The notes under the pieces are model-generated. The model was not told where the DNA came from and did not search any database. It was given only the letters and a program-made list of their open reading frames with translations. The translations under genes and the position numbers were made by a program. DNA of 64,000 nt from Rickettsia bellii RML369-C (GTDB lineage: Bacteria > Pseudomonadota > Alphaproteobacteria > Rickettsiales > Rickettsiaceae), in NCBI RefSeq assembly GCF_000012385.1, contig NC_007940.1:62001-126000 (forward strand), written 5' to 3'. Positions 43,472-45,011 of this stretch are shown piece after piece (position 1 is the first letter of the stretch; every line of letters starts with the position of its first letter).

Positions 43472-45011
43472 ATGAAATTAAAACCTATTGAAGTAGCTGA
43501 CATATTACAAAAAGAGATAGCAAATATTAATTGTTTAAGCGAGCTTGAAGAAGTAGGGCAGGTAATAAATGTTGGTGATGGTATAGCAAAAATTTATGGT
43601 CTTGCAAATGTGCAATCTGGTGAAGTAGTAGAATTTGAATCAGGTGTTAAAGGACTCGTTCTAAATTTAGAGAATGATAGTGTTGGTGCTGTGATTATGG
43701 GGGATGATAATCAGGTACAGCAAGGTGATAAGGTTAAAAGAACCAAAGAGGTGCTAGAAGTACTGGTAGGAACTGCTTTGCTTGGTAGAGTCGTTGATGC
43801 ACTCGGTAACCCTATTGATGGCAAAGGTGATATTAAGAGCAAAGAATATCGCCATATTGAAATGAAAGCTCCTGGTATAATCGATAGAGCTAGTGTTAGT
43901 GAGCCTGTGCAAACCGGTATAAAGGCTATTGATTCATTAATTCCGATAGGAAGAGGACAGAGAGAATTAATAATAGGCGATAGACAAACCGGCAAAACAG
44001 CAATAGCTATCGATACTATTATTAACCAAAAGCAAGCTCATTCGCTAAATGATGAAAAAGATAAAATTTATTGTATTTATGTAGCAATAGGGCAAAAAAG
44101 ATCAAGCGTTGCCCAAATAGTAAAAAAGCTGGAAGATGCTGGGGGCAATGGATTATACAATCATTGTTTCGGCTACTGCATCGGAAGCTGCTGTATTACA
44201 ATTTGTTGCTCCTTATGCCGCATGTAGTATGGGTGAGTATTTCCGTGATAACGGCAAGCATGCACTTATTATTTATGATGATTTAAGTAAACATGCTGTC
44301 GCATATAGACAAATTTCATTGTTACTTAGAAGACCGCCCGGACGTGAAGCATATCCCGGTGACGTATTTTACTTGCATTCAAGATTACTTGAGTGTGCTG
44401 CTAAAATGTCAGAGGAGAAAGGCGGCGGTTCACTTACGGCACTTCCTATAATCGAAACCCAAGCAGGTGACGTATCTGCTTATATTCCAACAAACGTTAT
44501 TTCTATTACTGACGGTCAAATTTTCTTAGAAAGCGAGCTGTTTTATAAAGGTATAAGACCGGCTGTTAATGTCGGGATTTCAGTAAGCCGTGTTGGTTCT
44601 GCTGCACAAATAAAAGCTATGAAGCAGGTTGCAGGCTCGATAAAGCTTGAACTAGCCCAATTTAGAGAGCTTGAATCTTTTTTACAATTTGGTTCAGACT
44701 TAGATTCTGCTACTAAAGCACAAATCGAACATGGTAAAAGGCTTGTTGAGATATTAAAACAAGCACAATATCATCCTTTTTCAGTCGAAGAGCAGATAAT
44801 AAGTATTTATGCTGGAACTAAAAAATATTTAATTAATATACCTGTAGAGAGAATTAAGGAATTTGAAGAAAAAATGCTTAGTGAGATAAAGCAAAATCAA
44901 AAAGATATTTTAGAGTCAATAAAAAGTGAGAAGCGTATCACTGAAGAAAATGAACAGAAATTAAAAACATTTTTAGAGAATTTCGTTAAGGACTTTGTCA
45001 AGATTGATTAG
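43472..45011 (+). pseudogene. atpA: ATP synthase F1 alpha subunit, interrupted by a one-base frameshift as given
   Basis: Two overlapping frames, 43472-44227 and 44136-45011, together encode a full alpha subunit of about 512 residues. The first part has the Walker A GDRQTGKT and reaches RSSVAQIVKKLEDAG, then goes out of frame. The other frame resumes with GAMDYTIIVSATASEAAVLQ and includes the ISITDGQIFLESELF and SRVGSAAQIKAMKQVAG segments and a normal C-terminus. Removing one G from the GGGGG run at 44141-44145 joins them. As the gene is essential, a sequencing or assembly error, or slippage at the run, is more likely than true loss. Confidence 0.9.

What the first reader, a model, noticed from the sequence alone, without database searches (positions are those of the whole stretch)
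44141..44145. One-base frameshift in atpA at a G5 run
Both halves of the ATP synthase alpha subunit are well conserved, but they are in different frames. Dropping one G from GGGGG restores LEDAGAMDYTIIV. Alpha is normally essential for F1. The choices are a homopolymer sequencing error, a slippage site that yields some full-length protein, or real loss in a strain that takes ATP from its host by nucleotide exchange. The last would be remarkable.
Basis: partly seen in the sequence, partly recalled or inferred. Interest (0 to 1): 0.7.

Follow-up and report, generated by a model that had tools for sequence, protein, structure and literature searches.

The report
Record-private frame break in atpA
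In this one Rickettsia genome record the gene for a core part of the ATP-making enzyme is cut into two reading frames, but near-identical genomes carry it whole, so an error or a very recent private change in this record is likelier than a lifestyle without ATP synthase.

Summary
In detail: the two halves of ATP synthase alpha (43472-44140 and 44148-45008) are conserved and in different frames, and the frame changes at the G run 44141-44145. It looks private to this record. The halves share a frame in 21 of 22 other Rickettsia genomes (the other is a scrambled draft contig), in 80 of 80 named loci (one of them also among the 21), and in three near-identical unnamed proteins on genome-length contigs. 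Each truncated protein is listed on one contig only, the window's own. There is no sign of long decay: dN/dS of both halves is ordinary, and the other F1Fo genes and five Tlc-family carriers have open frames. Little favours recoding: G runs are reported not prone to transcription slippage, no unusual glycine tRNA was seen in 30 of 34 matches scanned, and no RNA structure follows. The frame break and an Ala-to-Val change seen in 0 of 120 listed relatives lie 48 bases apart, which fits a poor patch of sequence but also a young dead gene. I put an artefact of the record at 0.70, a real private mutation at 0.20, and recoding or a two-piece alpha at 0.08 together. Raw reads would decide it; none were available.

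The parts
43472..44227 (+). ORF with the N-terminal part of ATP synthase alpha (223 native residues to 44140, then 28 out-of-frame codons to a stop)
44136..45011 (+). ORF with the C-terminal part of ATP synthase alpha (native frame from 44148)
44141..44145 (+). run of five G at which the frame changes
   Evidence: spacer 7 nt here, 6 nt in relatives
44193..44195 (+). codon for V241 (numbering of the 512-aa relatives); P, A or S in 120 of the 120 listed relatives; second private change
42813..43382 (+). atpH (delta/OSCP), open frame
45180..46040 (+). atpG (gamma), open frame
46215..47636 (+). atpD (beta), open frame
47820..48146 (+). atpC (epsilon), open frame

Best explanation
The frame break is most likely an artefact of this one genome record, a miscalled base in the G run or a change carried by a sequencing clone. 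The organism then makes an ordinary full-length alpha subunit and an ordinary F1Fo ATP synthase. Shown: the break exists in the record, no second record with it was found, and the gene has otherwise been under normal purifying selection. Inferred: that the cell's own DNA is unbroken; no reads could be seen.
For: The truncated forms P0121 and P0241 are each listed with one contig, of 1,522,076 bp, the window's own (the best 120 hits were listed). Three proteins without source names, on contigs of up to 1,543,886, 1,549,351 and 1,528,980 bp (P0010, P0014, P0016; P0010 on two contigs), are 512 aa in one frame, differ from the window's halves by only 2, 3 and 5 residues and share L98, C308 and L404. 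P0243, a partial unnamed protein with the same three residues, is whole across the site. The halves share a frame in 21 of 22 other Rickettsia genomes and 80 of 80 named loci; 123 of 129 order genomes of at least 95% completeness have an alpha match in an open frame of 507 aa or more. dN/dS is 0.07 (N half) and 0.093 (C half) against a median of 0.086 in 177 gene pairs. The other private residue, V241, lies 48 nt from the run and is V in 0 of 120 listed relatives. Of 8 G000 ORFs split against G012 in a sample, atpA is the only core-metabolism gene by my judgement; six others have family hits of accessory kinds and one 105-aa ORF was not classified.
Against: No reads or traces were available, so an error is not shown. 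Runs of five or more G are not generally broken in this record: 27 such runs lie in 177 intact conserved ORFs. Frame breaks are common in this group, many of them surely real: 8 split against 201 full one way and 11 against 206 the other way, one of the 11 being atpA's own tail. The 2008 comparison counted 15 split genes in strain RML369-C and 22 in OSU 85-389 (PMC2635572, passages seen). The V241 cluster is one event and weak evidence; it would also fit a real, young dead gene. dN/dS looks over a long time and cannot see a recent loss.
Confidence: 0.7

Rival explanations
1. A real, recent mutation private to this strain or its culture line destroyed alpha; the strain lives on host ATP taken up by nucleotide exchange.
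For: Five Tlc-family carriers with open frames in the same genome. The frame break and V241 are both private as far as seen. Gene decay by frame breaks is frequent in this group (PMC2635572, passages).
Against: The other F1Fo genes have open frames: delta, gamma, beta, epsilon, a, two b-type and c. Alpha is kept in one frame in 21 of 22 other Rickettsia; among 129 order genomes the five exceptions besides G000 are multi-contig drafts, two of them unexplained. No excess of amino-acid change in alpha. Only one substitution beyond the break, so a loss would have to be very young.
Confidence: 0.2
2. The break is real but bypassed: ribosomes or RNA polymerase shift frame at the G run often enough to make full-length alpha.
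For: The native frames meet at a homopolymer run. A frame break in another ATP synthase gene, chloroplast atpB, is known to be partly bypassed at an oligo-A run (PMC8254509, passages).
Against: In E. coli and Buchnera 100% of transcription insertions within homopolymer runs were in A or T runs, and G and C runs were called not prone to slippage (PMC5574713, passages); that statement is for insertions, and transcription deletions are said there to be rarely associated with runs. The chloroplast case needs an unbroken oligo-A stretch of 11. Folding of 44147-44240 is no better than shuffles, z -0.02. Only glycine tRNAs with anticodons gcc and tcc were found, in 30 of the 34 tRNA matches scanned. 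No relative with the break was found.
Confidence: 0.05
3. Alpha works as two separately translated chains that assemble into F1.
For: The second ORF has ATG codons at 44136 and 44148; the beta-barrel domain and the start of the nucleotide-binding domain are in the first chain, the rest in the second.
Against: The cut runs through the nucleotide-binding domain (PF00006 positions 1-67 and 67-213). The first ORF runs about 80 to 90 nt past the second's possible starts with 28 foreign codons. No second example was found.
Confidence: 0.03

Closest known systems
F-type ATP synthase subunit alpha (PF02874, PF00006, PF00306), e.g. bovine F1 alpha chain 1bmf_A
   Same: The two ORFs together hold the three domains. 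P0016, the intact near-identical protein, aligns over residues 5-508 with the best PDB chain, 9w2r_A, at 728.5 bits, and with 1bmf_A at 727.5 bits.
   Different: One chain there; two frames in this record.
Oenothera I-iota chloroplast atpB frame break corrected by recoding (PMC8254509; passages seen)
   Same: A frame break in a catalytic-core ATP synthase gene at a homopolymer.
   Different: An oligo-A stretch of 11 with full-length protein detected; here a run of five G, no protein data, no structure found.
Split genes of Rickettsia genomes (PMC2635572; passages seen)
   Same: One gene seen as two ORFs; 15 such genes counted in RML369-C and 22 in OSU 85-389, the latter including alanyl- and leucyl-tRNA synthetases.
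   Different: The passages seen do not name atpA as split; the supplementary table was not seen.

Membership tests
F-type ATP synthase alpha subunit | beta-barrel, nucleotide-binding and C-terminal domains all present | tested here: met
   PF02874, PF00006 (in two parts) and PF00306 across the two ORFs
F-type ATP synthase alpha subunit | all domains in one reading frame | tested here: not met
   two ORFs in different frames
F-type ATP synthase alpha subunit | gene order atpH-atpA-atpG-atpD-atpC | tested here: met
Decaying pseudogene | raised amino-acid change or further disruptions | tested here: not met
   dN/dS 0.07 and 0.093, with 66 and 98 of 177 gene pairs lower; no stop inside either native half. 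A very young loss is not excluded by this
Decaying pseudogene | break present in the cell's DNA | not testable with these tools
   no reads of the strain held
Programmed frameshift or slippage gene | shift site conserved among relatives | tested here: not met
   0 of 21 testable Rickettsia and 0 of 80 named loci have the break
Programmed frameshift or slippage gene | stimulating RNA structure or special tRNA | tested here: inconclusive
   z -0.02 for 44147-44240; Gly tRNAs gcc and tcc only, but 30 of 34 tRNA matches scanned
Sequence-record error | private to one record | tested here: met
   truncated forms listed on one contig each; intact in three near-identical proteins from other contigs
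Sequence-record error | absent from raw reads of the same strain | not testable with these tools
   no reads held

The most novel reading that the evidence does not exclude
The sequenced strain has truly lost a working F1 alpha subunit while keeping every other F1Fo gene open, and grows on host ATP alone: a Rickettsia caught at the first step of losing oxidative phosphorylation.
Probability: 0.12. Interest if true: 0.75.

Novelty: not a real feature. Interest (0 to 1): 0.2.

Why it matters
If the break were real, it would suggest that a Rickettsia can live without ATP synthase, which bears on the old question of energy parasitism. As an artefact it matters in a smaller way: a metabolic reconstruction that reads this record literally would call ATP synthase broken in a lineage whose other genomes carry it whole.

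Tried and rejected
Relaxed selection: at first sight the window's alpha has striking changes at conserved sites (P98L, R308C, S404L) against its closest relative in the genus search, G011, which looked like decay. P0010, P0014 and P0016 share them in an open gene, so they belong to the lineage, not to a dead gene.

A second natural split alpha: G065 showed two pieces, but the middle of the gene is a run of unknown bases there. G044 ends at a contig edge and G018 is scrambled at one; G059 begins at base 1 of its contig. G070 (residues 1-399) and G084 (only weak matches) are drafts and were not pursued. In nine of the 123 single-frame matches the match runs over one stop; for three of them (G006, G007, G009) I saw that it is the gene's own end, the other six were not looked at beyond their open-frame lengths of 514 to 561 aa.

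Papers: no paper held has Rickettsia bellii, ATP synthase and frameshift together, or Rickettsia bellii, RML369-C and resequenc, or the five terms. One search listed six papers, of which I saw passages of two. Searches were seen as listings, with passages of some papers. The genome paper of RML369-C is not held under the two ids tried. The ten papers shown of 910 gave no R. bellii proteome; one search was a false lead. PMC2653234 (passages), PMC8155191 and PMC11521996 (passages) gave nothing on alpha loss. PMC5009743 had none of the terms sought in the part held.

Recalled, from no call: that 1,522,076 bp is the size of R. bellii RML369-C and 1,528,980 bp that of OSU 85-389; the idea that clones can carry selected changes; the name Rickettsia palindromic element.

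Full report
What is there. The window is bases 62001-126000 of a single-contig genome of 1,522,076 bp, of the genus Rickettsia by its relatives; the size is that which I recall for R. bellii RML369-C. The operon reads atpH, atpA, atpG, atpD, atpC. atpA is in two ORFs, 43472-44227 and 44136-45011, in different frames. The native N part is 223 residues to 44140 and the native C part 287 residues from 44148. Neither native half has an internal stop. The frame changes at the G run 44141-44145.

Is it only here? Within the genus, 21 of 22 other species genomes hold both halves in one open frame with 6 bases between them; this record has 7. In four of the 21 the C-half match runs over one stop; for the three looked at it is the gene's own end. 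The 22nd, G018, is a draft whose matches are scrambled at a contig end. In 80 of 80 loci of named genomes, the best 80 kept of 588, the halves share a frame with the same 6 bases; one of the 80, L029, holds the same stretch as G014, so 79 add to the genus set. In a draw of 129 order genomes of at least 95% completeness, 123 have an alpha match in an open frame of 507 aa or more. The exceptions are this genome and five drafts: G044 and G059 cut by contig ends, G065 with unknown bases in the gene, G070 lacking the C-terminal end, G084 without a strong match.

Near-identical proteins. A protein search with an intact relative listed P0010, P0014 and P0016, 512 aa each, on contigs of up to 1,543,886, 1,549,351 and 1,528,980 bp, without source names. 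Position by position they differ from the window's halves at 2, 3 and 5 residues, V241 among them each time, and all three share L98, C308 and L404, found in 5, 3 and 3 of the 120 listed proteins. They are thus of the same lineage with an open gene. P0243, a partial unnamed protein with these residues, is also whole across the site, and so is P0242, a partial unnamed one without C308 and L404. The 251-aa and 291-aa truncated forms are listed with one contig each, the window's own.

Is the gene decaying? Against G012 the halves have dN/dS 0.07 and 0.093; 66 and 98 of 177 gene pairs are lower and the median is 0.086. Beta is 0.041, gamma 0.051, epsilon 0.168 and delta 0.234. This measures the lineage over a long time and cannot exclude a very recent loss. 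The other F1Fo genes have open frames, and five Tlc-family carriers are present.

How common are breaks in such records? Among ORFs whole in at least two of three relatives, 42 of 45 based on G012 are full in this genome, 1 is split (atpA) and 2 are partial; based on G011 it is 25 full, 1 split, 1 partial of 27, and on G019 32 full and 1 split of 33, atpA each time. The same test gives two split genes in the single-contig relative G019, an aconitase and a methyltransferase-domain protein (named), and none in G011 and G012, which have a few partial ones. ORFs without any match were dropped. In a larger sample (384 kb of this genome, 360 kb of G012) 201 G012 ORFs were full here, 8 split, 14 partial or other and 22 below 80% identity; the other way 206, 11, 12 and 26. 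Of the 8 splits here 5 are a net single base. The other seven are a competence protein, a solute-binding protein, a ManC-like enzyme, an ABC transporter, an M61-type peptidase, an ankyrin protein and a 105-aa ORF not classified. Breaks are thus frequent on both sides, mostly in what I judge accessory genes, and atpA stands out as core metabolism. Three of the other seven have a T run of five to eight within 15 bases of the junction. Five-G runs alone do not break genes: 27 lie in 177 intact conserved ORFs.

Could the cell read through it? Published genome-wide data place all transcription insertions within homopolymer runs of E. coli and Buchnera in A or T runs (PMC5574713, passages). The chloroplast atpB precedent needs an unbroken A stretch (PMC8254509, passages). 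No structure follows the site, no special glycine tRNA was seen in the 30 of 34 tRNA matches scanned, and no relative with the break was found.

Judgement. A break seen in one record only, in a core gene under normal selection, with a second private residue not seen in 120 relatives 48 bases away, is best explained as a fault of the record: a miscall, or damage in a clone (inference). A very young real loss cannot be excluded, because no reads were available.

Noticed in passing
window 44394-44396 (codon of residue 308), also P0010, P0014, P0016: The lineage carries Cys at a position that is Arg in 117 of 120 listed alpha proteins, plus Leu at positions 98 and 404: unusual substitutions in an open, otherwise constrained alpha.
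   Followed up: partly
window 43363-43455, 45001-45180, 46034-46189, 47645-47794: Palindromic repeats resembling Rickettsia palindromic elements (name recalled) lie between the genes atpH to atpC; three of the four stretches match Rfam RF02625 (WsnRNA46), one of them above its gathering score. The delta ORF runs into the first (189 aa here, 184 aa in G011).
   Followed up: partly
window 14048-17566 (-): The DNA polymerase III alpha ORF (Pfam) seems to hold an in-frame repeat-derived peptide (SVIPRLDCGIHGDQLKDTAVKPQYD), by eye.
   Followed up: no
window 13001-14034: Two adjacent ORFs match one 310-aa ORF of G012, a split gene of the YhgA-like transposase family PF04754.
   Followed up: partly
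G019:C1 52706-55341 and 68475-70098: The single-contig relative G019 has frame breaks in aconitase and in a methyltransferase-domain protein that are whole in this genome and in G012.
   Followed up: partly
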